Assembly (NCBI GenBank): GCA_944386385.1
Contig: CALXAV010000015.1
Span: forward strand, 1 to 42,306
Length of the DNA stretch: 42,306 nt
Reading direction: 5' to 3'
Source: an uncultured Clostridia bacterium
Lineage (GTDB): Bacteria > Bacillota > Clostridia > TANB77 > CAG-508
Shown here: positions 3,648-24,165 of the stretch, piece by piece
Layout of the letters: the number at the start of each line of letters is the position of its first letter
How positions within the stretch are numbered: position 1 is the first letter of the stretch
Position numbers and translations under genes: made by a program
The notes under the pieces: generated by a model
The model's input: the letters and a program-made list of their open reading frames with translations, nothing else
Databases searched by the model: none
What the model was told of the DNA's origin: nothing

Positions 3648-3662
3648 GTAGAGGTGATTTAT

Positions 3663-5324
3663 ATGACAGATATAGAAATCGCAAGAAATACAGAGTTACA
3701 AGAAATAGATAAAATAGCAAATAAAATAGGAATTGAAGAAGATGATTTAGAATTATATGGAAAGTATAAAGCTAAGATTTCTAATTCTGTATATGAAAAG
3801 GTAAAAGATAATAAGAATGGAAAATTAGTTTTAGTTACAGCAATAAGTCCAACACCTCTAGGAGAAGGCAAAACAACTGTATCAATAGCAATTGCAGATG
3901 GATTAAGAAAAATAGGCAAAAATTCTATTTTGGCACTAAGAGAACCTTCACTTGGTCCTGTTTTCGGAATAAAAGGAGGAGCAACAGGAGGAGGAAAAGT
4001 ACAAATAGCACCTATGGAAGATATTAACCTTCATTTTACAGGTGATATACATGCAATGACTGCAGCAAATAATTTGCTTTCAAGTATGATAGATAATCAT
4101 ATTTATTTTGGAAATGAATTAGGATTTAAAAAAGTAGTTTGGAAAAGATGTATGGATTTAAATGATAGACAATTGAGAAAAGTGGAAACAGGTCTATCAG
4201 GTGAAAAGAAAATAGTGCCAAGAGAAGATGGTTTTGATATAACAGTTGCATCTGAAATAATGGCAATTGTATGTCTATCAAAAGATATAAAAGATTTAAA
4301 AGAAAAACTAGGAAATATAATTGTTGGATATAACAATGAAGATAAACCAATATTTGCAAGAGATTTAAAGGTAAATGGAGCAATGGCGGTTCTTTTAAAA
4401 GATGGAATCAAACCTAATCTAGTACAAACATTAGAACATACACCAGCAATTGTTCATGGAGGACCTTTTGCAAATATTGCACATGGATGTAATAGTGTTA
4501 TTGCAACTAAAATGGCAATGAAGCTTTCTGATTATGTAATAACAGAAGCAGGATTTGGTGCAGATTTAGGAGCAGAAAAGTTCTTAGATATAAAATGTAG
4601 AAAAGCAGGACTAAAACCAGATGCTGTAGTTTTAGTTGCAACAATAAAGGCACTTAAATATCATGGTGGAGTTGAGAAAGAAAAGATACAAGAAGAAAAT
4701 ATAGAGGGACTAGAAAAAGGAATAGGTAATCTATATCGTCATATTGATAATCTAAAAAATAAATTTGGATTAAATGTAATAGTTGCATTAAATAGATATA
4801 CATCTGATACTAAGGAAGAAATTAAATGGTTAGAAAATAAATTGAATGAAAGAAGTATACCAGTAAGCATTGTTGAAGGATGGGCAAAAGGAGGAGAAGG
4901 TGCAACAGATATTGCAAAGAAGTTAGTAGATTTAGTAGAAGTACCTGAAAACTTTAATTTTATCTATGAAGATACTAATAGTATAAAAGATAAAATATTA
5001 AAAGTTGCAACTAAGATTTATGGGGCAAAAGATGTAGAATATTCAGATGAAGCAAAAGAAAATATAGAGATGATAGAAAAATTAGGATATGGAAACTTAC
5101 CTGTATGTATTGCAAAAACACAATACTCATTTTCAGATGATCCTAAAAATCTAGAATGTAATAATGAGTATAATATACATGTAAGAGATGTAGAACTAAA
5201 GACTGGGGCTGGATTTATTGTAGTATTGGCAGGAAAGATTATGACAATGCCAGGACTTCCAAAAGTTCCAGCAGCTGAAAGTATTGATATAGATGAAAAT
5301 GGAAATATAGTAGGAATTTTCTAA
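3663..5324 (+). CDS. fhs: Formate-tetrahydrofolate ligase
   Basis: A 553-residue enzyme of usual length that makes 10-formyl-THF from formate, THF and ATP, a one-carbon entry step in Clostridia. The P-loop TPLGEGKTT (residues 64-72), LREPSLGPVFGIKGGATGGG, NNLLSSMIDNHIYFGNELGF and the C-terminal MPGLPKVPAAESID are diagnostic. A GTG at 3654 lies inside the ribosome binding site (GAGGTG 3651-3656), so I use the ATG at 3663. The gene ends an eight-gene plus-strand run and is followed directly by a terminator. Confidence 0.97.
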   Translation: MTDIEIARNTELQEIDKIANKIGIEEDDLELYGKYKAKISNSVYEKVKDNKNGKLVLVTAISPTPLGEGKTTVSIAIADGLRKIGKNSILALREPSLGPVFGIKGGATGGGKVQIAPMEDINLHFTGDIHAMTAANNLLSSMIDNHIYFGNELGFKKVVWKRCMDLNDRQLRKVETGLSGEKKIVPREDGFDITVASEIMAIVCLSKDIKDLKEKLGNIIVGYNNEDKPIFARDLKVNGAMAVLLKDGIKPNLVQTLEHTPAIVHGGPFANIAHGCNSVIATKMAMKLSDYVITEAGFGADLGAEKFLDIKCRKAGLKPDAVVLVATIKALKYHGGVEKEKIQEENIEGLEKGIGNLYRHIDNLKNKFGLNVIVALNRYTSDTKEEIKWLENKLNERSIPVSIVEGWAKGGEGATDIAKKLVDLVEVPENFNFIYEDTNSIKDKILKVATKIYGAKDVEYSDEAKENIEMIEKLGYGNLPVCIAKTQYSFSDDPKNLECNNEYNIHVRDVELKTGAGFIVVLAGKIMTMPGLPKVPAAESIDIDENGNIVGIF

Positions 5325-5468: not shown

Positions 5469-6884
5469 ATGGGTAGAAAAGAGCGGTTTTACGCAGACGT
5501 TATGTCTGTGCATCCAGAAGTTACCGGTTCTTGTAACATTGTAACTGTAAGGCTTCCGAATGGTGAGAAGTTCCATTTTATTGTCGATTGTGGATTGTTC
5601 CAAGGGAGCAAGGAAGAAGAGGAACGTAATAAGGAGCTGATGTTTAATCCATACAATATTGATTTTTGCCTTGTTACTCATGGCCACGCAGACCATATTG
5701 GTCGTTTGCCTTTGTTGATAAAGAAGGGGTATAGAAAGTACATCTATACAACAGACGTTACAAGAAGCATAATGGCGCCAGCATTGAAAGATAGTGCTAG
5801 AATCATACAAAGCAAAGCCAAGCGGCGCAGAGAAAAGGCTATCTACGATGATGACGATGCTGAACATACAATGCAGTATGTCAAGGGATGTGATTACAAT
5901 CAATGGATTCACGTAAGGAATAACGTTGATGTAATGTTCCTTGGAAATAGCCACTTGTATGGCGCAGCTATGGTTCTTGTAAGAATAAGTTATCCCCAAG
6001 AAAGGGATATCAACATACTTTTCACAGGAGATTACAACAACAAGAATCTTTTCTTTGATTCAGAGCCTATACCAGATTGGGTATATGAATTACCACTTAC
6101 AGTCGTGCAAGAGTCTACATATGGATATATGAATTCTCAAGAGATTAAGGAGACTTTTGTAGACAATATTATTAAGTGCGTAAGTAAAGGCGGAACAGTT
6201 GTAATCCCAGCTTTTGCTCTTGGCCGTATGCAAGAAGTTCTGTATAAGCTTAAAGTACTACAGGACTTGGGAACTCTTCCTTTGGAAGTTGCTATATATG
6301 TCGATGGCAAACTTGGAGTTATGTACACAGAAATGTGTAAGAATGGCATGCTTGGTGTCAAGGAAGAGATGAGGGAGTTCCTTCCCAGTAATGTTGTCTT
6401 TGTTGACAAAACGACTAGAGGCATGATTTTACAGGATAATGCTTCTAAGATTATTGTGACAACTTCTGGCATGGGGTCTCATGGTCCGGCTGAAACCTAT
6501 ATTCCTAGTTACATAACTAGGAGGAATGCACTTATTCAGTTTACAGGTTATGTAGCAGAAGGAACATTAGGAAGAGAGCTAAAAGAGGCACCCAAAGGTG
6601 AAAATGTGAAAGTCCGAGGGGTCCTTTACAAGAAGCAGGCAGAAATCGAATATACCAATGAGTTTTCTGCACATGCGAAGGCTGATGAAATGATTAGCTT
6701 CTTGCAAAGGTTTGAAAAACTCAATCTGGTGCTTGTGAATCATGGCGAGACACCTGTTAAGGACCTGTTTGCTAGGCGCATTCTGAGAGAAGTTGATGCA
6801 AAGAATATTGCTATACTTGGTCAATATTTCCATAGAGTTAATCCATATGGCTTAGTCACGAGTAAGTCAACTAAGTTCTTGTAA
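5469..6884 (+). CDS. Beta-CASP metallo-beta-lactamase ribonuclease
   Basis: A 471-residue protein with the complete set of metallo-beta-lactamase/beta-CASP motifs: DCGLFQG (40-46), THGHADH (70-76), a metal-ligand His in NSHLYGAAMV (162), FTGDYN with Asp187, the Glu of VVQESTYG, the beta-CASP motif IPAFALGR (246-253), TTSGMGSHGPA, SAHAKADE (400-407) and VNHGE (423-427). Proteins of this kind (CPSF73-like, YsgH-like) are zinc-dependent endo- or 5'-exoribonucleases. It has its own extended -10 promoter, AAAGGAG 7 bases before ATG, and its own terminator. Codon use (CTT, GGC, AAG, CGC) and base composition differ sharply from fhs and uvrA, which suggests horizontal acquisition. RNA target unknown. 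Confidence 0.88.
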   Translation: MGRKERFYADVMSVHPEVTGSCNIVTVRLPNGEKFHFIVDCGLFQGSKEEEERNKELMFNPYNIDFCLVTHGHADHIGRLPLLIKKGYRKYIYTTDVTRSIMAPALKDSARIIQSKAKRRREKAIYDDDDAEHTMQYVKGCDYNQWIHVRNNVDVMFLGNSHLYGAAMVLVRISYPQERDINILFTGDYNNKNLFFDSEPIPDWVYELPLTVVQESTYGYMNSQEIKETFVDNIIKCVSKGGTVVIPAFALGRMQEVLYKLKVLQDLGTLPLEVAIYVDGKLGVMYTEMCKNGMLGVKEEMREFLPSNVVFVDKTTRGMILQDNASKIIVTTSGMGSHGPAETYIPSYITRRNALIQFTGYVAEGTLGRELKEAPKGENVKVRGVLYKKQAEIEYTNEFSAHAKADEMISFLQRFEKLNLVLVNHGETPVKDLFARRILREVDAKNIAILGQYFHRVNPYGLVTSKSTKFL

Positions 6885-6890
6885 TTCCAT

Positions 6891-6922
6891 AGGAAGCACC
6901 CAAAGTGGGTGCTTCCTTATTT
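6891..6922 (+). terminator. Terminator after the beta-CASP gene
   Basis: A 12-bp inverted repeat (6891-6902 with 6906-6917, GC-rich AGGAAGCACCCA arm) with a short loop and a weak TTATTT tail. The U tract is poor, so efficiency is uncertain. Confidence 0.75.
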
Positions 6923-6929
6923 AACAAAC

Positions 6930-6958
6930 TTAAAAGTTATGTAAATCTGTAGTATAAT
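6930..6958 (+). promoter_or_regulatory. Probable promoter of the first small island gene
   Basis: A perfect TATAAT at 6953-6958 with only a weak TTAAAA at 6930-6935 (17-base spacer). The bases around the -10 (TGTAGTATAATAT) are the same as at the uvrA promoter. Confidence 0.5.
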
Positions 6959-7013
6959 ATTTAAATGGTAGGTTTCTACCGTGCACGTTCAAACGATAGT
7001 CAAAGGAGAAGAC

Positions 7014-7406
7014 ATGAAAGTAACTAAAGTTGGCGTTGAGTTTGTCTCGTCATTTACGAGGCAGCTACTCGGTGACATCAGCCTTGAAAATGAGGAGGTG
7101 TTTCTTCAGGCAGAGTATCTGGCCCATGATAATGGAATCCTGTTCTTGAAGGGACTTGAATCTAACGGTACTCCTAAACAGGTGATCGAGCTCATGGCAG
7201 GTTGCTTTGAGGAAGACTCCGATATGGAGAAACTCCTCAAAGAGGAAGGGATTATCAAGGAGCATGAACATCTCGAAGGCATTGTGATGAGTGTCAATAA
7301 CATTCCTGTTCTTGCAACTCATTACTCGCATGATCTTGAAGAGCTCTACAAGATCTGGGACACACAGCTTCGGGCTGAAGAGATGGAGTGGAGGAGTACT
7401 CTCTAA
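7014..7406 (+). CDS. Small protein of unknown function (paralog of the next gene)
   Basis: A 130-residue soluble acidic protein with no recognised domain, signal peptide or membrane segment. The frame extends up to a GTG at 6981, but AAAGGAG at 7002-7008 points to the ATG at 7014. Its centre and end (IELMAGCFEEDSDMEKLL, then GIVMSVNNIPVLATH) match the next gene (IELLSACFVEGSNFEREM, then GFVMNIYGEPVLVKR) in order and spacing, so the two are diverged paralogs. Codon use is like that of the beta-CASP gene and unlike the surrounding genome. Function not known. Confidence 0.8.
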   Translation: MKVTKVGVEFVSSFTRQLLGDISLENEEVFLQAEYLAHDNGILFLKGLESNGTPKQVIELMAGCFEEDSDMEKLLKEEGIIKEHEHLEGIVMSVNNIPVLATHYSHDLEELYKIWDTQLRAEEMEWRSTL

Positions 7407-7449
7407 GCCTTTGGCTACCTAAGTAAGATATAATTATCTTACAAACAGG

Positions 7450-7480
7450 AAGGGGGCTTGAGAATAGCACCCCTTTTCTA
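7450..7480 (+). terminator. Terminator after the first small island gene
   Basis: A G-rich arm (AAGGGGGC from 7450) pairs with GCACCCCTT (to 7475), with one mismatch, followed by TTCTATT. Plausible rho-independent terminator of moderate quality. Confidence 0.6.
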
Positions 7481-7484
7481 TTAG

Positions 7485-7513
7485 TTGAAAATTATGTTAA
7501 TTGATGATATAAT
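7485..7513 (+). promoter_or_regulatory. Promoter of the second small island gene
   Basis: TTGAAA (7485-7490), a 17-base spacer and TATAAT (7508-7513). It gives a leader of roughly 45-50 bases that contains the right arm of the 12-bp inverted repeat. Confidence 0.7.
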
Positions 7514-7567
7514 ATAAATGTATTGTAAGTAGGTAGCCAAAGAGTATAAAGTTTCTAAGGGAGGAAA

Positions 7568-7930
7568 ATGGAAGCGACGAATGTTTCGATATACTTTTCA
7601 GGCATTGGAAACAAGCCATATATCGGAATCACTTTTTCAAATTCAAGGGCACACCTTGAGACCCAGTGCTTATGCTATGCTGACAATATTTTGAGCTTGA
7701 GAAAAGAATCTGGCTATTATGGAAATAGTAGTTGGATTAGTAAAATAGAAATAATCGAGCTCTTGTCAGCTTGCTTTGTGGAAGGGTCAAATTTTGAAAG
7801 AGAGATGGAAAAGTTCTTTAGAGGAAGGCCATATGAAATGGTTAATGGTTTTGTGATGAACATATATGGTGAGCCAGTTCTTGTAAAGCGTACAAAAAAG
7901 CAATATTTTACAAACAGAAGGGAGCTTTAA
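7568..7930 (+). CDS. Small protein of unknown function (paralog of the previous gene)
   Basis: A 120-residue soluble protein with a strong RBS (AAGGGAGG, 7557-7564). It shares with its upstream neighbour an IEL-x3-CF-x-E-(G/D)-S core followed about 25 residues later by G-(I/F)-VM-(N/S)-(V/I)-x3-PVL. The N-terminal halves differ more. Separate promoters and terminators show the two paralogs are independent transcription units. No enzyme motif, HTH or toxin-antitoxin hallmark is visible. Confidence 0.8.
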   Translation: MEATNVSIYFSGIGNKPYIGITFSNSRAHLETQCLCYADNILSLRKESGYYGNSSWISKIEIIELLSACFVEGSNFEREMEKFFRGRPYEMVNGFVMNIYGEPVLVKRTKKQYFTNRREL

Positions 7931-7966
7931 AAATTTGGCGACAAAGAAGTAGGATAATTCCTAGAA

Positions 7967-8000
7967 GCAGGAAGAAGTCTCGAAAGAGACTTTTTTCTGC
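7967..8000 (+). terminator. Strong terminator closing the island
   Basis: AAGTCTC (7975-7981), a GAAA tetraloop (7982-7985) and GAGACTT (7986-7992), then a T run. An outer GCAG/CTGC pairing extends the stem to 7967 and 8000. Confidence 0.9.
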
Positions 8001-8055
8001 TTTAAAATATATATATAAATTAAAAGAACTAATTAGAAAAAAGTAAACCAAACTC

Positions 8056-8084
8056 TTGTTTTTATTTGGGAGTTGTAGTATAAT
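8056..8084 (+). promoter_or_regulatory. uvrA promoter
   Basis: TTGTTT (8056-8061), a 17-base spacer and TATAAT (8079-8084). Transcription would start near 8091, leaving a very short leader that contains only the RBS (GGGGTG). No clear LexA box was found. Confidence 0.7.
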
Positions 8085-8100
8085 ATCTCGGGGTGAAAAG

Positions 8101-10929
8101 ATGAACGATAAAATAATAATAAAAGGTGCAAAAGAACATAATTTAAAAAATATAAGTTTGGAAATACCAAGAGATAAATTAGTAGTAATAACAGGACTTT
8201 CAGGTTCTGGAAAATCTAGTTTAGCATTTGATACATTATATGCAGAAGGGCAAAGAAGATATGTAGAAAGTTTATCTTCATATGCAAGACAATTTTTAGG
8301 ATTAATGGAGAAACCAGATGTTCAAAGAATAGATGGTTTGTCACCTGCAATATCAATAGACCAAAAAACAACATCTAAAAATCCTCGTTCAACAGTAGGA
8401 ACAGTAACAGAAATATATGATTATATTCGTTTATTATATGCTAGAATTGGTGTTCCTTATTGTCCTAATTGTGGTAAAAAAATAGAAAAGCAAAGTATAG
8501 ATCAAATAATAGATAATATAATGAGCTTACCAGAGGGAACAAAAATACAGGTATTAGCACCAGTAGTTCGTGGACGTAAAGGTGAATATACAAAACAGTT
8601 AGAAGGATATCAAAAAGAAGGTTTTGTAAGAGTTAGAATTGATGGTGAAAACTATGAATTATCTGACGATATAGAATTAGATAGAAAGAAAAAGCATGAT
8701 ATCGAATTAGTGGTAGATAGATTGGTGATAAAGCCAGAAATTATAAGTAGATTAACAGAATCAGTAGAAATAGCACTAAAACATGCAGATAAACTTGTTT
8801 TAATAGATGTAGTGGGTAAAAAACCTATATTATATAGCTGTAATTATGCTTGCCCTGATTGTGGATTTAGTTTCCCAGAACTTACACCTAGAATGTTTTC
8901 ATTTAATAATCCATTTGGTGCATGTCCAGTTTGTACAGGTATTGGATATTTGATGAAAATGGATGAAGATTTAATTGTTCCAGATAAAAATAAAACTCTA
9001 TATGATGGAATAAAGGCTTTTGGTTCTAGTACTATGAAAAAAGGCGACACAATGGCAAAAATGTATTTTGAGGCAATAGGAAAACATTATGGAATAGATA
9101 TAAGAAACAAGAAGATTAAAGATTTGCCACGTTGGTTTATGGAGAAAATACTTTATGGTACAAATGATGAAGAAATAGATTTTGAATATTCATCATATGC
9201 AGGAGTAAGAAAGTTTACAGCACCATTTGAGGGAGTACTTCCTACTTTAGACAGACGTCATAATGAAACAAAATCACAAGGTATGAGAGATTTCTATGAA
9301 ATGTATATGACAAATTCAGAATGTTATGCTTGCCATGGAGCAAGATTGAAACCAGAAATTTTATCAATTAAAGTAGGAGATAAAAATATAAATGAGTTGA
9401 CAGCAATGTCAATAAACAAAATAAAAGAATATTTAAATAATTTGGAATTAAATAAAACAGAAGCAATGATTTCAGAATTGATATTAAAAGAAATAGACCA
9501 AAGATTACAATTTTTGATAGATGTAGGATTAGAGTATTTAACATTATCAAGAAGTGCAGGAACATTATCAGGTGGAGAAGCGCAAAGAATCCGTTTAGCA
9601 ACACAAATAGGTTCTGGATTAACAGGAGTTTTGTATATATTAGATGAGCCAAGTATTGGACTTCACCAAAGAGATAATGATAAGTTATTAGCAACACTTA
9701 AAAAATTAAGAGATTTAGGAAATACTTTAATTGTTGTAGAACATGACGAAGATACTATGTATGCAGCAGACCAGATAATTGATATTGGACCTGGTGCTGG
9801 AAGCCATGGAGGAAGAGTAATGGCTCAAGGTACTGCTGAAGAAGTAAAAAAAGTAGAAGATTCTGTAACTGGACAATATTTAAGTGGAAGGAAGAAAATA
9901 CCAGTACCTAAAAAAAGGAGAAAAGCATTAAAAACAAAAGTAATTGAGGTACAAGGTGCTACAGAGAATAATTTAAAAAATATTAGCGTTAAATTCCCAC
10001 TTGGAGTATTTAATTGTGTTACAGGTGTATCAGGTTCAGGAAAGTCAACACTTATAAACGAAGTTTTATATAAAACAGTAGCAAAAGAATTAAATGGTTC
10101 AAATGAAAAGCCAGGTAAATGTAAAGGTGTTAAAGGATTACAAAATGTAGATAAAATAATAAATATAGACCAATCACCAATAGGAAGGACTCCTAGGTCA
10201 AATCCTGCAACATATACAGGTGTATTTGATTTAATAAGAGATATATTTGCAGCTACAGAGGAGGCAAAACTAAGAGGTTACCAAAAGGGAAGATTTAGTT
10301 TTAATGTAGCTGGAGGTAGATGTGAAAGTTGTAATGGTGACGGTGTTCATAAAATAGAAATGCACTTTTTACCTGATATATATGTACCTTGTGAAGTTTG
10401 TAAGGGAAAACGTTATAATCGTGAAACATTAGAGGTTAGATATAAAGGTAAAAATATTGCAGATATATTAGATATGACAGTAGAAGAAGCATTGCAATTC
10501 TTTGATAAAATACCTAAAATAAAAAATAAAATCCAAACACTTTATGATGTAGGTTTAGGTTATATAAAACTTGGACAACCTTCAACAACATTATCAGGAG
10601 GAGAGGCACAAAGAGTTAAACTTGCAACTGAATTATCAAAAAGAGCAACTGGAAAAACATTATATATATTAGATGAACCAACAACAGGTCTTCATATTGC
10701 AGATGTTCATAAGCTAGTAAATATTTTACAAAGATTAGTTGATACTGGGAATACTATTATAGTAATTGAACATAATTTGGATTTAATTAAAACTTGTGAC
10801 CATATAATTGACCTAGGACCAGAAGGTGGAGATAATGGTGGAGAAGTTATTGCAGTAGGAACTCCAGAACAAATCTGTAAAAATGAAAGAAGTTATACAG
10901 GTAAGTTCTTAAAGAAATATTTAGAATAG
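8101..10929 (+). CDS. uvrA: UvrABC system protein A
   Basis: A 942-residue excinuclease subunit, the damage-sensing ATPase of nucleotide excision repair. It has two ABC modules: Walker [10 protein letters not shown] (32-40) with [11 protein letters not shown] and [12 protein letters not shown], and [15 protein letters not shown] with [11 protein letters not shown] and [11 protein letters not shown]. Zinc motifs CPNCGKK, ACPDCGF with ACPVCTG, and CESCNGDG with CEVCKGKR are all present. The frame is open to a TTG at 8056, but that codon lies in the -35 box, so translation starts at the ATG at 8101. uvrB and uvrC are not in the window. Confidence 0.98.
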
Positions 10930-10934
10930 AAAAT

Positions 10935-10976
10935 AAAAGGTAATTTACTTCAAAAGTAGTTACCTTTTTATTTTTT
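10935..10976 (+). terminator. Terminator after uvrA
   Basis: The AAAAGGTAA arm pairs with TTACCTTTT, with an inner TACTT/AGTA extension, followed by TTTTTATTTTTT. Confidence 0.85.
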
Positions 10977-10977
10977 G

Positions 10978-11006
10978 TTGAAAAATTCAAAAAAATGTGA
11001 TAAAAT
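10978..11006 (+). promoter_or_regulatory. Promoter of poly-HTH gene 1
   Basis: TTGAAA (10978-10983), a 17-base spacer and TAAAAT (11001-11006) with an extended TGA before it, then TTATGTTAA downstream. The same layout recurs in front of poly-HTH gene 2. Confidence 0.75.
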
Positions 11007-11036
11007 AATTATGTTAATTAGAGAGGAGTAATAATT

Positions 11037-11843
11037 ATGAATAGTAGTTTTGAGAAAGGCATGGTATCACAGATGAGTATAAATCAGAGAAGAAATCCAG
11101 GAAAACGTAGAAAAAGACAAGAAGTAATAGAGTTATTTGAAAGTGATATGTATTCTAGTGTAGATGAAATAGCAGAAATGGCAGGAATAGCGAAAAAAAG
11201 CGTGAGAAACTATCTTGGAAAAAGAAGACTAGCAACTATTAAAGATAATGGAAGTGAAGATAGTGAGCAAGAAGAGGAAAAAAGCAAAAATGGAGTTTTA
11301 ACTTCAGAGAAAGTTGATAAAATTGTATCAGAAAGAAATGCAAGAATAAGACAACTATATGATGATGGTGTAAGTATTACAGAGGTTGCAAGAAGAGAAC
11401 ATTTAACAATGGATCAAGCAAAAGAAATCTATTTCTCACTTGGATTAAGTATATATACAGAACAAGAACTTGAACAAATTGAAGAAATGAGAGAAGCAAA
11501 GAGAAAAGCGGAAAGAAAAGAAGCTCAAAGAAGACGAAAAAGAGAATTGGAAAGGAAAAGAAGAGCAAGAATTAGAGCTGAAAAAGAAAGAGAAAAGGAA
11601 GAAGAAAAAATTCCTGAACAAAGCTTTAGAGGTATAGTAAAGAAAATGCAAGAATATGTAAGACAAAGAAATTCCAAGGCTGCAATAGAATATGCTGAAT
11701 CTGTTATTAATGATGCTGACTTTTTAACTAAAAAAGAGAAAGATGAATTGTTTATTATAGTTCAATATATTAAATCAAAACGTAGAGCACATGAAATAGA
11801 TAAAAGTAAATATTCAAAAACTCATGATGGAGAAGATAGATAG
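11037..11843 (+). CDS. Poly-HTH protein 1 (two HTH units, coiled coil, C-terminal helical module)
   Basis: A 268-residue very charged protein. HTH unit 1 covers about residues 25-66 (VDEIAEMAGIAKKSVRNYLG). HTH unit 2 is about residues 99-145 (SITEVARREHLTMDQAKEIY, then FSLGLSIYTEQEL). An Arg/Lys/Glu-rich segment (150-192) is probably a single long helix or coiled coil. The last part, about 196-250, has a pattern (YVRQ, DADFLTKKEKDEL) shared with the two following proteins. Strong RBS GAGAGGAG at 11021-11028. No ligand or enzymatic domain. First member of a five-gene family and separately terminated. I infer DNA binding; the target is unknown. Confidence 0.82.
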   Translation: MNSSFEKGMVSQMSINQRRNPGKRRKRQEVIELFESDMYSSVDEIAEMAGIAKKSVRNYLGKRRLATIKDNGSEDSEQEEEKSKNGVLTSEKVDKIVSERNARIRQLYDDGVSITEVARREHLTMDQAKEIYFSLGLSIYTEQELEQIEEMREAKRKAERKEAQRRRKRELERKRRARIRAEKEREKEEEKIPEQSFRGIVKKMQEYVRQRNSKAAIEYAESVINDADFLTKKEKDELFIIVQYIKSKRRAHEIDKSKYSKTHDGEDR

Positions 11844-11873
11844 AAAATAAATTATAAATAAAATTTTAGAGAT

Positions 11874-11925
11874 AAAAGAAAATATTTTTAATTATTTTTA
11901 AAAGTATTTTCTTTTCTTTTTGTGA
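11874..11925 (+). terminator. Terminator after poly-HTH gene 1
   Basis: An 11-bp stem, AAAAGAAAATA (11874-11884) with TATTTTCTTTT (11905-11915), then a T-rich tail. Arms and loop are almost identical to the terminator after poly-HTH gene 5 at 17962. Confidence 0.85.
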
Positions 11926-11960
11926 AAAAGTGAAATTAGTTAAAGTATTAGCATTTTTTG

Positions 11961-11989
11961 TTGAAAATTTAGTTAAAATATGGTAAAAT
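11961..11989 (+). promoter_or_regulatory. Promoter of the poly-HTH operon (genes 2-5)
   Basis: TTGAAA (11961-11966), a 17-base spacer and TAAAAT (11984-11989), preceded by TGG and followed by TTATGTTAA. It closely copies the gene 1 promoter, including the TTTTTTG before the -35. Confidence 0.75.
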
Positions 11990-12021
11990 ATTTATGTTAA
12001 GTATAGGACGGAGGAATTATA

Positions 12022-12867
12022 ATGAATAATTATTTAATGCAAGATTTGGGTAGAACAGGAAAAAAAGGAAGAATTAGAAGTCTTTCACCTGAAGAGAGAA
12101 GAATAATAAAAGCAAGGGATTTATTTGAGAATAAGCATATAGGAATAGAAGAAATTGCTGAGATATTAGAAGTAGATGTAGATAGAGTAAAAAAATATCT
12201 AGGAAAAAGAAGAATAGAAAGTGTTAAAAATCCTGAGAGTAAAAAAAATAGAAAAACTCTGAAGAGATCCAAAACACCAGTAACAAATGGTAATAATGGT
12301 TCTAAAAAGAGTCATAAACTAACTTCAGGAGAAGTAGACAAAATAACCGCCCAAAGAAATGAAAGAATTATAACATTACATGAAATGGGGGCAACTATTG
12401 CAGAAGTTGCTGAAAGAGAAAATTTGACACTTAGCCAAGCAAAGGAAATATATATGTCACTTGGATTAAGCATTTATACTAAAGAAGAACGCGAAAGAAT
12501 GAGAATGCAAGAAGAAAAAAGAAGACAAGAAGAAGCAGAAGAAGAGAGAAAAATGAAAGTAAAGATGGCAAGAAATAGAAGAAGAGCAAAAATAAAAGCA
12601 GAAAGAGAAAGACAAGAAAGAGAATGCTTACAAGCTGAAAAAAGACAAGTCAAACCAGAAATACAAAGTCTTGACGATATAAAAAGAGAAATATTTGAGT
12701 GTATTAAACAGAAAAACTATAAAGGAATATCAGAATTAGGAGAACAATATTTAGATGCAGATTTCTTAAGTGAAAGTGATAGAGCAAAGCTAAGAAAAGC
12801 AGTAGACATAGTATACGCACTAAAAGGTGAAAGTAGAGGAGACGAACATTCAGACGAATCTAGATAG
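12022..12867 (+). CDS. Poly-HTH protein 2 (two HTH units, coiled coil, C-terminal helical module)
   Basis: A 281-residue paralog of the gene at 11037 with the same plan: HTH unit 1 about residues 27-68 (IGIEEIAEILEVDVDRVKKY), a linker, HTH unit 2 about 110-155 (ATIAEVAERENLTLSQAKEI then YMSLGLSIYTKEE), a Glu/Arg/Lys coiled-coil region (155-210), and the C-terminal module 216-268 (CIKQ, LDADFLSESDRAKL). RBS GGAGG at about 12009. The TAG stop overlaps the SD of the next gene (TAGGAG, 12865-12870), which implies an operon with tight coupling. Confidence 0.82.
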   Translation: MNNYLMQDLGRTGKKGRIRSLSPEERRIIKARDLFENKHIGIEEIAEILEVDVDRVKKYLGKRRIESVKNPESKKNRKTLKRSKTPVTNGNNGSKKSHKLTSGEVDKITAQRNERIITLHEMGATIAEVAERENLTLSQAKEIYMSLGLSIYTKEERERMRMQEEKRRQEEAEEERKMKVKMARNRRRAKIKAERERQERECLQAEKRQVKPEIQSLDDIKREIFECIKQKNYKGISELGEQYLDADFLSESDRAKLRKAVDIVYALKGESRGDEHSDESR

Positions 12868-12878
12868 GAGTTTAAATT

Positions 12879-14582
12879 ATGGAAAGAAATAAAGAGGAAG
12901 AAATAGAAGAAATAGAATCAAGAAGAAAAAAAGTAGCAAGATTATATAATGAAGGGAAAAGCAATAAAGAAATAGAAGAAGAATTAGGACTATCAGATTC
13001 TACAGTATATAGAGATATAAAAGTATTAATAGAAGAAGGAGTAATAGAAGCTAGGACTGAAAAAAGAGATGAGACAAGAAGAAAAGTAGCAAGATTATAT
13101 ATAGAAGGAAAAAGTTACAAAGAAATAGCAGAAGAATTAGGAATGTCAATGGGAACAGTTAAATATGATCTAATGTTTTTAAAAAAGAGTGGAATTTTAG
13201 GAGATAGTTCAAGAAGAAAAAACAAATCAGAAATAAATGCAAGAAGAGAAAAAGTAGCAAGGTTATATAAAGAAGGAAAGAAGCCAAAAAGGATATCAGA
13301 AGAATTAGGTGTGCCAATACAGATAGTTGAATATGACTTGAAGTATTTAAAAAAGAAAGGAGTATTAGAAATGACTTCTAAAAAAGTAGCACAGGAAATA
13401 GCTAGAAGAAGAAAAGAAGTAGCAAGACTATATAATGAAGGAAAAAATGCTAAAGAAATATCAGAAGAATTGGGAATGTCATATTATACAATATCTAGAG
13501 ATATAAAAGAATTAATAAAAAAAGGAATGTTAGAAAAAAGAGATAGAAAAATACATGATATAGACGGAAAGATAGCCGAAAGAAGAGACAAAGTTGCAAG
13601 GTTATATAGAGAAGGAAAAACAAAAAAAGGAATAGCAGAAGAGTTAGGGGTATCAGCTTTTACAATTTACCAAGATATAAAAGCATTAGAAGAACAAGGA
13701 ATAATAGAAGCGAGAACTAAAAAAAGTGATAGAAGAAGAGAAGTAGCAAGATTATATAATGAAGGTAAAAGCTATAAAGAAATAGCAGAAGAATTAGGGC
13801 TATCAATAGGAGCAATTACATATGATGTAACGTGTTTAAAAGAAAATGGAATGTTAAAATATAGTATGAAAAGCAAAAAAGAATCAGAAATAAATGCGAG
13901 AAAAGAAAAAGTAGCAAGATTATATAATGAAGGTAAAAGTACTAAAGAAATAGCGGAAGAATTAAAGGTAGATGTTTCAACAGTTCGTTCATATATAAGA
14001 GATTTAAAAAAAGCAGGAATAATAGTTGACGATGAGCAGCAAAATGGTGAAGATAATGGCTCTAAAATGACTAAAAAGATGGTAAATACACTTGTAGGAG
14101 AAAGAAATGAAAAGATAAAAAAATTGTATGAAGAAGGTTTGACTATGGCGGAGGTTGCCAAAAGAGTAAATTTAACACTTAGTCAAGCAAAAGAGATTTA
14201 TTTGTCACTTGGATTAAGCATATATACAGAAGAAGAACTTGAAAGAATGAGAAGACAAGAAGAGGAACGAGTAAGAAGAAAAGAAAAGAGAAAAAGAAAA
14301 AAACAAGAAGAGGAACAAGCAAAAAAAGTAGCAGAAGAAAGTAGACAAGCAAAAAATGATGAACAAGAAGGACCTGTCTTATCAAGTTTAGTAGATATAG
14401 CAAGGAAAGTTAAGGGATATATTAAAAATGGAGAGTTAGAAGAAGCGGAAAAACTTAGTGAATCTTACATGGGAGCAGATTTTTTGAGTGAGGAAGATAA
14501 AGATAAACTAAATAAATTAGTAGATTTGATAAAATCAGTAAGAAGTAAGAATAAGGAAGGTCACATAGACGAAGCTAGATAG
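12879..14582 (+). CDS. Poly-HTH protein 3 (eight HTH units)
   Basis: A 567-residue protein built mostly of tandem HTH units of about 50-60 residues. Seven similar units start near residues 15, 67, 122, 177, 235, 285 and 341; the consensus is roughly RR-x2-VARLYNEGKS-x-KEIAEELG(V/M/L)S, then a recognition-type helix and a GI(I/L)E turn. Unit 8 (about 408-453, LTMAEVAKRVNLTLSQAKEI) is the SLGLSIYTEEE type also found in proteins 1 and 2. A charged coiled coil (453-495) and the C-terminal module (501-555, YIKN, MGADFLSEEDKDKL) follow. Each unit resembles sigma-region-4-like or DeoR-like HTHs. The stop and next SD overlap (TAGGAG, 14580-14585). Confidence 0.85.
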   Translation: MERNKEEEIEEIESRRKKVARLYNEGKSNKEIEEELGLSDSTVYRDIKVLIEEGVIEARTEKRDETRRKVARLYIEGKSYKEIAEELGMSMGTVKYDLMFLKKSGILGDSSRRKNKSEINARREKVARLYKEGKKPKRISEELGVPIQIVEYDLKYLKKKGVLEMTSKKVAQEIARRRKEVARLYNEGKNAKEISEELGMSYYTISRDIKELIKKGMLEKRDRKIHDIDGKIAERRDKVARLYREGKTKKGIAEELGVSAFTIYQDIKALEEQGIIEARTKKSDRRREVARLYNEGKSYKEIAEELGLSIGAITYDVTCLKENGMLKYSMKSKKESEINARKEKVARLYNEGKSTKEIAEELKVDVSTVRSYIRDLKKAGIIVDDEQQNGEDNGSKMTKKMVNTLVGERNEKIKKLYEEGLTMAEVAKRVNLTLSQAKEIYLSLGLSIYTEEELERMRRQEEERVRRKEKRKRKKQEEEQAKKVAEESRQAKNDEQEGPVLSSLVDIARKVKGYIKNGELEEAEKLSESYMGADFLSEEDKDKLNKLVDLIKSVRSKNKEGHIDEAR

Positions 14583-14593
14583 GAGCTAAAAGT

Positions 14594-17491
14594 ATGGAAG
14601 AAAAACATGAAAGTAAATCAATGGACGTAAAAGAAAGAAGAAAAAAAGTAGAAGGATTACATAATGGAGGTATAAAAGAAAAGAGAATAGCAAAAATTCT
14701 TGGTATTCCAATTCGTGTTGTAGAAAGAGATTTGGATTTCTTAGCAAGGCATAATAGAACTAGAGATGTTGAACTTTCAGTAGAGGTACAAGAGGAAATA
14801 CGAGCAAGAAGACCAAAAAAGAGTGATACAAGTATAGAAATAACTAGAGAGAAGACAAAAAGTGAAAAAATAGCTGAAAGAAGAGAAAAAGTTGCAAGAC
14901 TATATAGTGAAGGAAAAAGTGCTAAAAAGATAGCAGAAGAATTGGGAGTGTCATATGCTACAATATATCAAGATATAAGACTATTAAGAGAAGAAGGAAC
15001 GTTAGAAAAGAGTACTAGAAAAAAACGTGCTACAATTGGAAGAGTAGCTGAAAGAAGAAAAGAACTAGAAAGACTATATAATGAAGGAAAAAGTGTTCTT
15101 GAAATAGCAGAAGAATTAGGAGTATCACGTGATGTAATATATCAAGATATAAGATTATTAATAAAAGAAGGAATGTTAGGAAAAAGAGATAGAAAAAAAC
15201 GTGCTACAAATGCGGAAGTAGCAGAGAGAAGAAAAGAAGCAGCAAGGTTATATAATGAAGGAAAAAGTGTTCCTGAAATAGCAGAAAAATTTGGAGTATC
15301 ACGTGATGTAATATATCAAGATATAAGACTATTAATAAAACAAGGAATAATAGAAAAAACAGAGAAAAGAAGGAAATCAAGAAAAGTAAAAAAAGGAAAA
15401 ATAAGTACTGGTAAAAAAGTTGCTATGACAACTTCAAAAAGAGAGCTTCATAGAAAGATGGAAGAGTTACAAAGTGAAGGAAATAGTTATGGAGAAATAG
15501 CAGATGCATTAAATGTAAGTATTGTTGAAGTTGTTGAATATTTAGAAAGTTTAGTAAGTAAGGTATCAGAAGATAAAAGTGAAAGACAATACCTAGATAG
15601 AAAGACTAGAGTGAAAAAATTATTTGATAGTGGTAAAACAACAAAGGAGATAGCAGAAGAATTAAAAATTCCAGAGAACTTGGTAAGAGAAGACTTGTTA
15701 TTACTAGGAATAATCCCTGGTTTAAGAGTAGTGCCTAGCAAAGAGACAGACAAGGAAAAAGAAAAAAGAAAAAATGAAACAGCTAGAGCTAAAGAATTAA
15801 CTAAACCAGAAGAGACATCACAACCTGATAGAAGTAAAGCAATGAATGTAAAAGAAAGAAGAGCAAAAGTAGGAGAATTATACAGTCAAGGAATTGAAAA
15901 AGAAGAAATAGCTAAAAGACTTGAAATTTCAATTAATGCTGTAAGTAGAGATATAGAATTTTTATTAGCACATAATTTAATTGGTGAAAAAACTGAAAAT
16001 GCAGGTGTACAAGAAGTAAAGCAAATACCAGATGCAAAAGGTGAAGCACCTCAAGTAGAGATTGATGAAGAGGAAGAAAAAAGAAAACAGCAAAGAAAAG
16101 AAAGTTTACAACTAGCAGAGAAAAAGAGAAGAAAAAAACAAGATAGAAGAAGACAACGTATATTAGGTGTGTATAATGCAAACAAAGGAGAGGTAAAACC
16201 AACACAAACTGAGGAAAATGAAGAAATTGAAGTCATAATAAGAGATAGACAGAAAAGAAGAGATGAAATAGGAAGATTATTAGAAGATGGAAAAACTCGA
16301 TATGAAATACAACAAGAATCAGGACATGATATGGAGGATATAGCTGCGGATATAAATTATTATAGATCTGCAAGAGATAATTTTGATAGAAAAAATAATA
16401 CAAATAGAAAAATAGAAAGTAGAAGAAGAAAGATTTTAGCACTTTTAAATGAAAATATGAGCGTAGAAGAAATATCAGAAAGGCTAAATATTCCAATTGC
16501 TGTTGTACGCAGAGATGCAGACTACTTAAACGCAAATGGTAAAGTGGGGAATAAACCTAAAAAAGCAAAACAAGGCAGACCATCTAAAAGAGAGATTGTT
16601 GAAAAGATAAAGACGTTACAAGAAGAAGGAAAAGGTTACGGAGAAATAGCAGATGAATTACACTTGTCAATTTCAGAAGTTATCATAGCTTTACAAGAAA
16701 ACGAAAAAGATGCTAAAGATATTTCTGAAGCTAGAAGAAAGCAAATAGTTGATTTATGGAATGAAGGAAAAACATTAGGTGAAATTTCTAGAAGTCTTGG
16801 AGTTAATGTTAATCTGATAATGGAAGATTTATTAGGTACAGGTGTTTCAAAGGAAAGTATAGAAACAGAAGAAGAAAGAAGAGAACAAGAGGAAAGAGAA
16901 AGAAAAGAGCGAGAAGAAAGAGAAAGAAGGGAGCAAGAAGAGAGAGAAAGAAAAAAACAGAAAATAAGAGAATTAAGAAATAAAGGAGAAGAAGCATATT
17001 ACGTAATGATGTTACAAAAGATAAAAATCTATATTGTAAGGCAAGATTTTGATAAGGTATTAGAGTATATAAAAATGATAGAAAGTGAAGTTAAGTTAAG
17101 CGAAGAAGAAAAGAATTATCTTAATCAAATTAAAATGGCTATGCAAAAAAGAATAAGGATAGAAGCCGAAAAAAAAAGGGCAAGGCTTATTAGTAAAAAA
17201 GAAATTGAAGATGAAGGGCAAAGAAATGAAGCAGAAGAAGCATATTACAAAATGATGTTAAAAGAGATAAAGAATTATATTGTAAGGCAAGATTTTGATA
17301 AGGTATTAGAGTATATAAAAGTGCTAGAAGGTGAAGTTAAATTAAGTGGAGAAGAAAAGAAGAATTTAAATCAAATTAAAAAGGCTATACAAGGAAAAGT
17401 AAAATCTAAAAGAGAAAGTGTACAAATGATGGTAAAGAAGGAAGGTAAAGACAAAAATAGAAGTAAAGGAAGTGAGATATATGAAAACTAA
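14594..17491 (+). CDS. Poly-HTH protein 4 (about eleven HTH units, duplicated C-terminal module)
   Basis: A 965-residue protein. I count HTH-like units at about residues 14-50, 96-139, 153-196, 211-254, 284-322, 335-372, 420-464, 554-594, 609-651, 664-703 and 712-748. Units 3 and 4 are nearly identical, sharing GVSRDVIYQDIRLLIK. Charged linkers separate groups (490-520; 755-790 is an almost pure Glu/Arg stretch, probably a single alpha-helix). The C-terminus holds two copies of an approximately 55-residue helical module (about 800-850 and 882-932), both with YIVRQDFDKVLEYIK. No catalytic motif. It overlaps the next gene by 11 bases. Unit counts are by eye; the weaker units (1, 8) may be degenerate. 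Confidence 0.83.
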   Translation: MEEKHESKSMDVKERRKKVEGLHNGGIKEKRIAKILGIPIRVVERDLDFLARHNRTRDVELSVEVQEEIRARRPKKSDTSIEITREKTKSEKIAERREKVARLYSEGKSAKKIAEELGVSYATIYQDIRLLREEGTLEKSTRKKRATIGRVAERRKELERLYNEGKSVLEIAEELGVSRDVIYQDIRLLIKEGMLGKRDRKKRATNAEVAERRKEAARLYNEGKSVPEIAEKFGVSRDVIYQDIRLLIKQGIIEKTEKRRKSRKVKKGKISTGKKVAMTTSKRELHRKMEELQSEGNSYGEIADALNVSIVEVVEYLESLVSKVSEDKSERQYLDRKTRVKKLFDSGKTTKEIAEELKIPENLVREDLLLLGIIPGLRVVPSKETDKEKEKRKNETARAKELTKPEETSQPDRSKAMNVKERRAKVGELYSQGIEKEEIAKRLEISINAVSRDIEFLLAHNLIGEKTENAGVQEVKQIPDAKGEAPQVEIDEEEEKRKQQRKESLQLAEKKRRKKQDRRRQRILGVYNANKGEVKPTQTEENEEIEVIIRDRQKRRDEIGRLLEDGKTRYEIQQESGHDMEDIAADINYYRSARDNFDRKNNTNRKIESRRRKILALLNENMSVEEISERLNIPIAVVRRDADYLNANGKVGNKPKKAKQGRPSKREIVEKIKTLQEEGKGYGEIADELHLSISEVIIALQENEKDAKDISEARRKQIVDLWNEGKTLGEISRSLGVNVNLIMEDLLGTGVSKESIETEEERREQEERERKEREERERREQEERERKKQKIRELRNKGEEAYYVMMLQKIKIYIVRQDFDKVLEYIKMIESEVKLSEEEKNYLNQIKMAMQKRIRIEAEKKRARLISKKEIEDEGQRNEAEEAYYKMMLKEIKNYIVRQDFDKVLEYIKVLEGEVKLSGEEKKNLNQIKKAIQGKVKSKRESVQMMVKKEGKDKNRSKGSEIYEN
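15083..15354 (+). repeat. Recent internal tandem duplication in poly-HTH gene 4
   Basis: The stretches 15083-15180 and 15257-15354 are near-identical at DNA level, 174 bases (58 codons) apart. The shared core TCACGTGATGTAATATATCA is unchanged. This is one HTH unit plus linker, so units are gained in frame by duplication. Confidence 0.85.
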
Positions 17492-17957
17492 AAGTACTGT
17501 AGGAAATGAAAAAGAAAAAATTAGTCAAATTGAAGGAAAACTAGGAACAGGCATGGCATATTTATATAGAAAATCATTGGCTGTTGAATTGTATGCTGAA
17601 GGACAAGGTATCCAAAAAGATGAAATTGCTGAAATGTTAGGATGTACAAGAGATACTGTAAATAAATACTTAAGGACTGCAAAAGAAGATGACAGAAAAG
17701 GTAAAAGAAAAGGTGAGGATACAAGAAGTAAGTTACAAAAAAGATTGCTAATGTTTGCAAATTTGTATGCAGAAGGAGAAAGCGAAAAAGAGATAGCAGA
17801 AGAACTTGTACTAGATGAAGAAACAGTAAAAGCTTATAGAGATTTTTTACTAAGACAAGAAAAACTAGGACCAATTTTAGAAAAAAGACATAGACAAGGA
17901 GTAGAAGAAAGAGAAAAAATTGAAAGAGAATTAGAAGAGGAAGACGAAGAAAGATAA
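17481..17957 (+). CDS. Poly-HTH protein 5 (two HTH units, no C-terminal module)
   Basis: A 158-residue protein with two HTH units, about residues 32-68 (IQKDEIAEMLGCTRDTVNKY) and 87-126 (SEKEIAEELVLDEETVKAYR), and an acidic, Glu/Arg-rich tail. It lacks the C-terminal module of the others. The frame opens at a GTG at 17472, one base after AAAGGA (17465-17470); the ATG at 17481 has normal spacing, so I start there, giving an 11-base overlap with the previous gene. Confidence 0.8.
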   Translation: MKTKSTVGNEKEKISQIEGKLGTGMAYLYRKSLAVELYAEGQGIQKDEIAEMLGCTRDTVNKYLRTAKEDDRKGKRKGEDTRSKLQKRLLMFANLYAEGESEKEIAEELVLDEETVKAYRDFLLRQEKLGPILEKRHRQGVEEREKIERELEEEDEER

Positions 17958-17961
17958 ACAT

Positions 17962-18008
17962 AAAAGAAAATATTTTTAATTAAATTTAAAAGTATTTTCT
18001 TTTATTTT
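17962..18008 (+). terminator. Terminator after the poly-HTH operon
   Basis: AAAAGAAAATA (17962-17972) pairs with TATTTTCTTTT (17993-18003 region), followed by ATTTTG. Nearly the same sequence as the terminator at 11874. Confidence 0.85.
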
Positions 18009-18060
18009 GTATAAAAAATATAAAATTATTAAAAACTAAAGAAAAAATGGAGGGATTTTA

Positions 18061-19650: not shown

Positions 19651-20370
19651 ATGGAAGAAAAAAATAAAGATTTAAAAGAAAACAAAAAGGTAGAGACAAA
19701 AAAAGAAGTTAAAAAAGAAGAACCAAAATTCCAAAAAGTAGAAAAGAAAGAGGTAAAGAAAAAAGAAGATAAAAAAGAAAAGAAACAAGGAAGTAAAAAA
19801 GCTCCATGGATACCAACACTTGTAACTGTAATAGTAGTATTATTAGTTGCAGCATTGTTAACAGTTATGATAGTAACTTCAAGTGCACCTAAAAAATCAT
19901 TAGAAGCATTATTAACAAACTTAAAGGCTGGAGATTTTACAAAAGCACAAGAATACTTAAGTGGAGAAATAAATAATTTAGGATTAGACGAAGAGTCTCA
20001 AAAATTATTATTTGATAAATTAAATTGGAAAGTAAATAAAGTTACAGAAACAGATGAAAATAATGCAACAATCGAAGTAGATATAACAACAAAAGATATT
20101 GAAAGTATAATAAATAATTATGCTAGAAAAGTATTAGACGCAGTAAGAGGAGCAATTTCAGGAAACGATGGTGCTGAAAATGTATCAAGTCAAGATTTTA
20201 AAGATTATTTTGTAGAACAATTGAAAAACGATGACATACAAACTACAACAGTAAACGCAACAATAAATGCTGTTAAAGAAGATGGTAAATGGAAAATAGT
20301 TTCTGATGAATCTTTAGAAAATGCTATATTACCTGGATTAGAAGAAGCAATATCAACATTAGAATCATAA
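19651..20370 (+). CDS. Membrane-anchored extracytoplasmic protein, DUF4878-like
   Basis: A 239-residue protein with a Lys/Glu-rich cytoplasmic N-terminus (1-50), one transmembrane helix (about 54-76) and an extracytoplasmic domain. The domain (KKSLEALLTNLKAGDFTKAQ near the start, INAVKEDGKWKIV near the end) has the NTF2-like pattern of DUF4878 and related lipoprotein domains. There is no lipobox. Strong RBS AAGGAG (19637-19642). Role unknown. Confidence 0.72.
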   Translation: MEEKNKDLKENKKVETKKEVKKEEPKFQKVEKKEVKKKEDKKEKKQGSKKAPWIPTLVTVIVVLLVAALLTVMIVTSSAPKKSLEALLTNLKAGDFTKAQEYLSGEINNLGLDEESQKLLFDKLNWKVNKVTETDENNATIEVDITTKDIESIINNYARKVLDAVRGAISGNDGAENVSSQDFKDYFVEQLKNDDIQTTTVNATINAVKEDGKWKIVSDESLENAILPGLEEAISTLES

Positions 20371-24130: not shown

Positions 24131-24165
24131 AAATAAAAAAGTATAGCATTAAAAACTATACTTTT
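24131..24165 (-). terminator. Terminator of the acyltransferase-like gene
   Basis: A 10-bp stem (24137-24146 with 24156-24165) that reaches into the stop codon region, followed on the minus strand by TTTTTTATTT. Confidence 0.82.

What the first reader, a model, noticed from the sequence alone, without database searches (positions are those of the whole stretch)
11037..17957. A five-gene family of proteins made of strings of HTH units (2, 2, 8, about 11 and 2)
Seen: five adjacent same-strand genes whose products are almost only helix-turn-helix units, joined by charged linkers, with no ligand, enzymatic or membrane domain. Known: transcription factors normally carry one or two HTHs; long arrays resemble modular or repeat-tracking DNA-binding proteins. 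Inference: they may coat or bridge DNA, read repeated sites, or act as chromosome organisers, perhaps in spores as they precede gpr. I know no described system with this layout.
Basis: partly seen in the sequence, partly recalled or inferred. Interest (0 to 1): 0.85.

Follow-up and report, generated by a model that had tools for sequence, protein, structure and literature searches.

The report
Fast-evolving bacterial helix-turn-helix array proteins
Five neighbouring bacterial genes encode proteins built from strings of up to eleven DNA-binding units, and the residues expected to read DNA have changed faster than neutral, as in animal zinc-finger arrays, which suggests a DNA-recognition repertoire that keeps changing its targets.

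Summary
In detail: five genes at 11037-17957 carry 2, 2, 8, 11 and 2 helix-turn-helix (HTH) units. Missed: g1-g3 share a C-terminal module with a charged helix and TPR-like hairpin; g4 has two such hairpins.

In 10 other genomes of the genus such genes sit directly upstream of gpr, 1-4 ORFs each; uvrA and gpr are mostly 86-98% identical, the HTH proteins 29-47%. Arrays occur at other sites in the genus and in three further genera of the family, but a class-wide draw of 341 genomes hit only the own one.

The strongest new result: unit copies within arrays differ most at exposed recognition-helix positions. There dN/dS is 2.4, elsewhere 0.44 (44 spanning-tree pairs, 15 proteins). The module's second HTH is conserved at these positions. 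This fits selection for new DNA specificities, as in KRAB zinc fingers or PRDM9, and argues against uniform DNA coating. The spore idea is not supported: the genes have their own vegetative-type promoter. DNA binding and targets are inferred. The nearest natural solved structure is an archaeal CRISPR-repeat-binding protein.

The parts
10935..10969 (+). hairpin plus T-run after uvrA, terminator-like, upstream of the cluster
   Evidence: kept in the 9 aligned loci (by eye); the consensus terminator scan did not call it
10978..11006 (+). promoter of g1: TTGAAA-17-TAAAAT with TG before the second hexamer
   Evidence: an extended pattern is found once in the own genome
11037..11843 (+). g1, 268 aa, 2 HTH units, charged stretch, TPR-like hairpin
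   Evidence: shared module A1
11961..11989 (+). promoter of g2, same pattern as for g1
12022..12867 (+). g2, 281 aa, 2 HTH units, helix 154-208, hairpin helices 217-268
   Evidence: AlphaFold2 model mean pLDDT 78, pTM 0.33
12879..14582 (+). g3, 567 aa, 7 array units plus the module HTH, charged stretch and hairpin
   Evidence: Pfam HTH_23 E 3.4e-46
14046..14579 (+). C-terminal module of g3 (HTH, SLGLSIYT motif, charged stretch, hairpin); the like in g1 11274-11840 and g2 12292-12864
14594..17491 (+). g4, 965 aa, 11 HTH units; a 174-nt tandem repeat of 2.8 copies at 14871-15363
17012..17419 (+). two copies of the TPR-like hairpin at the end of g4 (17012-17185, 17249-17419)
   Evidence: the profile matches designed consensus TPRs, mostly over short stretches
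17472..17957 (+). g5, 161 aa, 2 HTH units, overlaps the end of g4; the ATG at 17481 may be the true start
17955..18060 (+). gpr leader with a hairpin, separate from the cluster
   Evidence: same leader in seven filled and two empty sites; a third empty site, G109, differs

Best explanation
A lineage-specific family of modular DNA readers. Each HTH unit is expected to contact a short stretch of DNA, and the units of one protein to bind in series along an extended site, so an array of 8-11 units would have a long and specific target. Units are copied within a gene, and the recognition-helix residues of the copies are then driven apart, giving new specificities on a constant scaffold. The conserved C-terminal HTH, charged helix and TPR-like hairpin would be the shared effector or assembly part, as KRAB is in zinc-finger proteins. 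The most likely use is to bind, and probably silence, DNA that changes fast, such as phages, plasmids and other mobile elements. Shown by computation: unit architecture, copying within genes, excess non-synonymous change at the recognition positions, conserved module, own promoter, fixed sites, narrow distribution. Inferred: DNA binding, serial binding, repression, kind of target.
For: Within-protein unit pairs taken as spanning-tree edges built on columns outside the recognition helix: at columns 26, 27, 30, 31 Nd/N = 144/416 and Sd/S = 18/106 (pN/pS 2.05, dN/dS 2.43); at the other columns pN/pS 0.48; of 46,376 four-column sets only this one reaches the observed pN (1 set at distance below 0.2 and 0.3, 2 below 0.4, 3 with all edges); bootstrap over proteins of recognition pN over pooled pS 1.37-2.02. 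Leaving out any one of 18 proteins gives 1.35-1.46 (71 edges); window genes alone 1.5, proteins away from the gpr site 1.25; sliding the set by one column lowers pN from 0.40 to 0.31 or 0.27. Columns 26-31 are the first turns of helix 3 in the model. 72 of 196 units have their nearest unit in the same protein, 4.8 expected. Control: the second HTH of the module proteins has recognition entropy 1.02 bits against 1.36 for its other columns (12 proteins). Precedents, passages read: three Cbp1 HTHs lie in order along a CRISPR repeat (PMC10883916); DNA-contacting residues of KRAB-ZNF duplicates often show positive selection (PMC3126818).
Against: No binding, expression or target data. I named columns 26, 27, 30, 31 after seeing the entropy table, though they are the canonical exposed recognition positions (recalled); the all-subset test removes most of that choice. 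Columns 15 and 35 are also highly variable, and the first HTH of the module proteins is variable at the recognition columns (1.9-2.5 bits). Spanning-tree edges share units, Nei-Gojobori counts are approximate, and about half of the 464 pairs have pS above 0.45. The charged, helical proteins could bind RNA or protein instead. No link to mobile elements was found: viral scans gave none (sensitive only to a few peptide patterns). PADLOC hits are to HTH-bearing profiles, among them the 60-residue mad1 with g1 at E 1.8e-06. Only 26 of 194 genus genomes gave an array hit, so the family is dispensable. Some flanking genes also diverge fast (19651-20370 at 65-71%, 5469-6884 at 61-94%).
Confidence: 0.6

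Rival explanations
1. Ordinary host regulators: multi-HTH transcription factors whose targets are host promoters, and whose specificity shifts as regulatory networks are rewired, with no conflict with mobile DNA.
For: Conserved vegetative-type promoter, fixed chromosomal sites, purifying selection outside the recognition helix.
Against: pN/pS of about 2 at the recognition positions is more than drift or relaxed constraint gives. Presence is patchy, and the proteins are 29-47% identical between genomes whose uvrA and gpr are mostly 86-98% identical.
Confidence: 0.22
2. Architectural proteins that coat, bridge or organise the chromosome, or the spore DNA.
For: Many DNA-binding units joined by charged linkers; gpr, the spore protease gene, is the next gene in the window and in the 10 other genomes with this locus.
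Against: Recognition positions are among the most variable along the arrays. 185 of 194 genus genomes have gpr, 14 of 194 a module hit. Promoter and leaders are separate from gpr.
Confidence: 0.1
3. Parts of, or relics of, mobile elements: transposase-type DNA-binding arrays that mark their own ends or insertion sites.
For: Profile similarity to HTHs of IS630 and IS21 transposases, resolvases, TnsD and terminase small subunits; g3 even passes the IS630 cut-off (112.7 against 100) by six repeated HTH matches; patchy presence; 7 phage records with partial g3 matches (best E 2e-11).
Against: Only the HTH parts of these profiles match; TnsD and IS21 stay below their cut-offs. No transposase or integrase stood out by eye beside the 11 gpr-site clusters, but no family search of those neighbours was run. 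Flanking gene order is kept and the site is empty in relatives.
Confidence: 0.08

Closest known systems
Cbp1/Cbp2, CRISPR-repeat-binding proteins of archaea (2lvs; NF040595)
   Same: Tandem HTH units derived by duplication; 2lvs is the best natural match of the unit profile in the PDB (after the entry 'CAP repeat') and the first Foldseek match of the two-unit model (E 0.033). In Cbp1 three HTHs lie in order along one repeat (PMC10883916, passages read).
   Different: Two or three units against up to 11. g3 scores 97.7 bits against the family cut-off of 140. No charged helix and hairpin module that I know of. Diversifying selection was not tested for Cbp1.
KRAB zinc-finger proteins and PRDM9
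   Same: Clustered, lineage-specific genes with variable numbers of DNA-binding units, DNA-contacting residues under positive selection, and a separate effector part (PMC3126818 and PMC5363842, passages read).
   Different: Different fold (C2H2 zinc finger), eukaryotic, with binding and silencing shown by experiment; none of that is shown here.
TALE and TALE-like repeat proteins
   Same: Bacterial array whose units differ at the positions that set specificity (abstract of PMC5472282).
   Different: Unrelated repeat fold of about 34 residues (recalled). The screen of PMC5472282 for variable repeats of 30-43 residues (abstract, outline and passages read) does not use the words HTH or helix-turn-helix in its main text; units here start mostly about 45-65 residues apart.
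TnsD-type target selectors of Tn7-like transposons
   Different: PF15978 hits are below its cut-off and no TniQ family hit is listed; transposition genes nearby were not searched for by family.

Membership tests
Cbp1 (NF040595) | score above the curated cut-off of 140 bits | tested here: not met
   g3 97.7, g4 59.6 bits
Cbp1 (NF040595) | binds CRISPR repeats | not testable with these tools
   no binding data; CRISPR arrays in the genome were not searched for
KRAB/C2H2 zinc-finger arrays | C2H2 zinc-finger units and KRAB domain | tested here: not met
   no such Pfam family among the hits shown (25 of 98, 25 of 66 and 25 of 33 listed for g3, g4, g5); the modelled g3 units fold as three-helix HTHs
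KRAB/C2H2 zinc-finger arrays (works like) | diversifying selection at the DNA-contacting residues of array units | tested here: met
   dN/dS 2.43 at four recognition columns, 0.44 elsewhere; robust to leaving out any one protein; that these residues contact DNA is recalled and modelled, not measured
Sigma-70 factors | sigma region 2 plus region 4 | tested here: not met
   g3 and g4 pass the region-4 cut-offs (PF08281 119 and 85 bits) through repeated HTH matches; region 2 is not among the hits shown
CARF/Csa3 regulators | CARF domain before the HTH | tested here: not met
   TIGR01884 gives 109.6 bits for g3 (cut-off 60.2), but its best stretch covers only positions 149-194 of 202, the HTH end
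TnsD/TniQ | PF15978 above its cut-off of 32.4 bits | tested here: not met
   16.0 bits for g2, 24.5 for g5
Phage proteins | relatives in phage records or viral contigs | tested here: inconclusive
   g2: none in 50,697 phage records; g3: 7 records with partial matches, best E 2e-11 over 53%; module and array: none by peptide-pattern scans of IMG/VR
Spore DNA proteins | spore-specific expression | tested here: inconclusive
   promoter resembles the vegetative consensus; no expression data

The most novel reading that the evidence does not exclude
A bacterial counterpart of the KRAB zinc-finger system: a protein-coded, inherited repertoire of programmable DNA readers that is renewed by copying HTH units and by positive selection on their base-reading residues, and that silences invading or selfish DNA through a shared effector module. 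The recognition residues would then give a readable HTH code for modular DNA targeting.
Probability: 0.3. Interest if true: 0.95.

Novelty: new variant of a known kind. Interest (0 to 1): 0.82.

Why it matters
Arrays of DNA-binding units that evolve new specificities under positive selection are known from animal zinc fingers and PRDM9. The same signature in bacterial HTH arrays would mean that bacteria too can keep a fast-changing, protein-based DNA-recognition repertoire, and it makes the question testable with single purified proteins. Arrays with natural unit swaps would also be a new source of modular DNA-binding proteins.

Tried and rejected
Rejected readings. Spore chromatin: separate promoter and leaders, patchy presence. 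Uniform coating or tracking of one repeat: variable recognition helices. Membership of Cbp1, TnsD, sigma factors, terminases or CARF/Csa3: only HTH parts match, and where cut-offs are passed (for example IS630, TIGR01884, PF08281 with g3) it is by repeated HTH matches. Relaxed constraint: predicts pN/pS near 1, observed 2.05 at low divergence. Shuffling of diverged blocks: would raise synonymous change at the same columns, but pS is 0.17 there and 0.21 elsewhere.

Led nowhere: g2 alone in genome contigs; viral scans; Rfam and tRNA scans of the window; paper searches for Hin contacts, the entry 8vd6 and HTH contact positions. So the claim that columns 26, 27, 30, 31 face the bases rests on recalled knowledge of HTH complexes and on the model. 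'Not in print' rests, open-access PubMed Central only.

Set aside: module hits in G134 and G191 (single HTH, looked at), in G185 and in the charged part of an array of G165 (not followed); a single-HTH gene in G019; the array hit in G088 (not fetched). Of 220 units in 53 proteins, 211 segments are in the alignment; 5 belong to proteins outside the 53 and were skipped, leaving 206 for the codon tests. ORFs in relatives were called with table 11, so genes broken at CGG (see noticed) appear as two; in G107 6267-8486 and 8425-9030 are probably one gene.

Full report
1. Observation. The five ORFs are at the stated places. An HMM made from seven g3 units and iterated on the window's five proteins plus three proteins of a relative (G028) finds 2, 2, 8, 11 and 2 units; the weakest accepted scores 21 bits, against a maximum of 7.9 in 1,600 shuffled proteins. 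Pfam agrees strongly for g3, g4 and g5 (HTH_23), weakly for g2, and puts no family over its cut-off for g1. Tandem repeats are visible in the DNA: 168 nt x 2.4 in g3 and 174 nt x 2.8 in g4. Searched with g3, the own genome shows no relative outside this cluster.

2. g1, g2 and g3 end in a common module of about 180 residues: an HTH, a conserved SLGLSIYT motif, a charged stretch and a helical hairpin. The hairpin recurs twice in g4 and in three proteins of G028; its profile matches designed consensus TPRs in the PDB, mostly over short stretches. AlphaFold2 of g2 (12 sequences) gives mean pLDDT 78 and pTM 0.33: two HTHs, one helix from 154 to 208, then helices 217-229, 233-242 and 251-268. A two-unit fragment of g3 (57 sequences) gives mean pLDDT 80 and pTM 0.43: two three-helix HTHs with a poorly defined linker, so the placing of units relative to each other is not known. 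No Foldseek match reaches E 0.001; the first is 2lvs, a CRISPR-repeat-binding protein (E 0.033, probability 0.99), and a single unit fits the DNA-bound DeoR domain 7bhy (E 1.0, probability 0.99, 1.3 A over 47 columns). By sequence, the unit profile finds first 8vd6 ('CAP repeat', nature not looked up) and then 2lvs.

3. Distribution. The shared module hits 14 of 194 genus genomes, the own one included, and 5 of 336 genomes drawn from the order, all in the genus. The g3 array hits 26 of 194 genus genomes, 14 of 238 of the order (11 in the genus, 3 in other genera of the same family) and 1 of 341 of the class, the own genome. The array searches scored only the best 5-9 candidates per genome, so divergent arrays can be missed. 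g2 has no match in 50,697 phage records; g3 has partial matches in 7. Pattern scans of IMG/VR found no relative of the module or of the g3 array.

4. Fixed sites, fast change. I fetched the surroundings of 10 other genomes with strong module hits (G028, G145, G107, G174, G202, G159, G165, G096, G212, G279). In 10 of 10 a module gene or its cluster lies directly upstream of gpr on the same strand; in 8 of 10 uvrA is upstream on the same contig (in G028 the contig ends; in G165 another gene is there, and uvrA followed by a 9-unit array is on another contig). ORF numbers there run from 1 to 4, with up to 11 units in one ORF. uvrA and gpr pieces are 86-98% identical to the window's, one gpr fragment 79%; the HTH ORFs are 29-47% identical in local BLAST alignments, and two had no hit. 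Some other flanking proteins diverge more: 61-94% for 5469-6884, 65-71% for 19651-20370, and small proteins even more. Full-length module proteins are 28-43% identical to g2. At 17 further gpr loci (L084-L100) no HTH gene lies upstream of gpr next to it; uvrA is in view in 15 of them, G100's stretch is cut and G198 has another neighbour. One of the 17, G015, has a 5-unit gene just downstream of gpr, and another, G075, a 2-unit gene some kilobases upstream. Elsewhere, arrays recur at a few sites: beside homologues of window 3204-3647 and/or 3654-5324 in 11 genomes (with G075), next to a sigma-factor-like gene (by eye) in 3, and at other places in 5. The window's own 3204/3654 site is empty (6 bases between the two ORFs).

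5. Promoter. Before the first HTH gene, 9 of 9 aligned loci have a hairpin, then TTGAAA, a spacer and a TAAAAT-like hexamer usually preceded by TG (G165 varies), then a conserved downstream stretch; G028 and G096 were not in this alignment. With up to two substitutions the pattern stands before 11 of the 12 module genes; for the twelfth, G174, it is seen. No chance rate was computed for that. In its extended form it occurs once in the own genome and not in the reversed control. The leader of gpr, with its own hairpin, is alike in seven filled and two empty sites; a third empty site, G109, differs. The cluster is thus probably its own transcription unit with a vegetative-type promoter. The scan itself finds no more promoter-like sites than shuffles (20 against 25.5) and no terminator, so the weight lies on conservation.

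6. Selection. From 53 proteins with 220 units, 211 unit segments were aligned over 36 columns; entropy is highest at columns 27, 26, 15, 30, 35 and 31 (3.3-3.8 bits). In the two-unit model helix 3 starts at column 26 and helix 2 at column 15. Among 464 within-protein pairs, those with pS below 0.45 (237) have pN/pS 1.83 at columns 26, 27, 30, 31, 0.75 at exposed helix-1/2 columns and 0.60 at core and turn columns. With spanning-tree edges chosen on columns outside 25-32, at distance below 0.2: recognition pN 0.347, pS 0.169, dN/dS 2.43; other columns pN 0.103, pS 0.215, dN/dS 0.44 (44 edges, 15 proteins). Of 46,376 sets of four columns only the recognition set itself reaches its value; with all 148 edges 3 sets do and dN/dS is 1.65. 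Leaving out any one protein changes little (1.35-1.46), the window's genes alone show it (1.5), proteins away from the gpr site show it less (1.25), and moving the set by one column lowers pN. In G152 ten units are nearly identical in DNA, and the differences cluster in columns 24-27 and 30-35, with others at 13-20. Controls: in the second HTH of the module proteins the recognition columns are more conserved than the rest (1.02 against 1.36 bits; K in 11 of 12 and E in 12 of 12 at columns 30 and 31); the first HTH of the same proteins is variable there (1.9-2.5 bits).

7. Mechanism. The simplest reading is diversification of DNA specificity on a constant scaffold, with a constant effector part. 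Serial binding along DNA has a precedent in Cbp1 (passages of PMC10883916); positive selection on DNA-contacting residues of array units has one in KRAB zinc fingers and PRDM9 (passages of PMC3126818). A conflict with mobile DNA is a usual reason for such selection, but nothing found here ties the arrays to a target. I put the diversified-reader model at 0.6 and the silencing of mobile DNA, its strongest form, at 0.3.

8. Caveats. The four columns were named after the entropy table had been seen. The base-facing role is recalled from known HTH complexes (for example Hin) and was not confirmed from a paper here. The genomes are fragmented; the four named records behind module hits are metagenome assemblies of uncultured Clostridia. 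The own genome is 92% complete with 3% contamination.

Noticed in passing
window 24164-25016 (-); flank genes of many relatives (uvrA, gpr, homologues of 3204-3647 and 3654-5324): CGG seems to act as a +1 frameshift site or four-base codon. 80 of 80 plus-one frame joints recorded in flank genes have an in-frame CGG nearby (some genomes and joints are counted more than once; 5 minus-one joints in uvrA, 4 with CGG), against 82 CGG in 111,435 aligned codons; in the joints read by eye the C is skipped and GGN gives Gly. uvrA has an extra C at one place in 28 of 31 aligned loci, 25 of 28 genomes. The window's gene 24164-25016 is whole only with CGGT read as Gly at codon 85. In-frame CGG is rare: 6 of 12,521 codons in 35 window ORFs. 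The passages read of PMC8629427 describe CGG as reassigned or unassigned in some Firmicutes, not this.
   Followed up: partly
L186 1501-1574 (own genome, contig C13): An odd tRNA-Gly: anticodon TCC followed by G, so that TCCG could pair with CGGN, and an anticodon stem with a mismatch; the two other tRNA-Gly(TCC) genes have A there. No tRNA with anticodon CCG is listed for the 30 loci scanned, of 31 hits. A possible reader of the four-base codon.
   Followed up: partly
window 6981-7406 and 7568-7930: Two small proteins beside uvrA that also diverge fast (about 30-78% identity while uvrA is mostly 86-98%); two copies in G210 and in G005.
   Followed up: no
L018 9228-9656, L101 3456-3728, L102 2239-2667: A small single-HTH gene that recurs near a 326-aa gene and an integrase-like gene (by eye) in three genomes, perhaps a mobile element.
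   Followed up: no
window 10978-11013 and 11961-11989: The promoter of the module genes is conserved beyond the two hexamers (spacer and ATTATG downstream), as if a common regulator, perhaps the conserved module HTH itself, bound there.
   Followed up: partly
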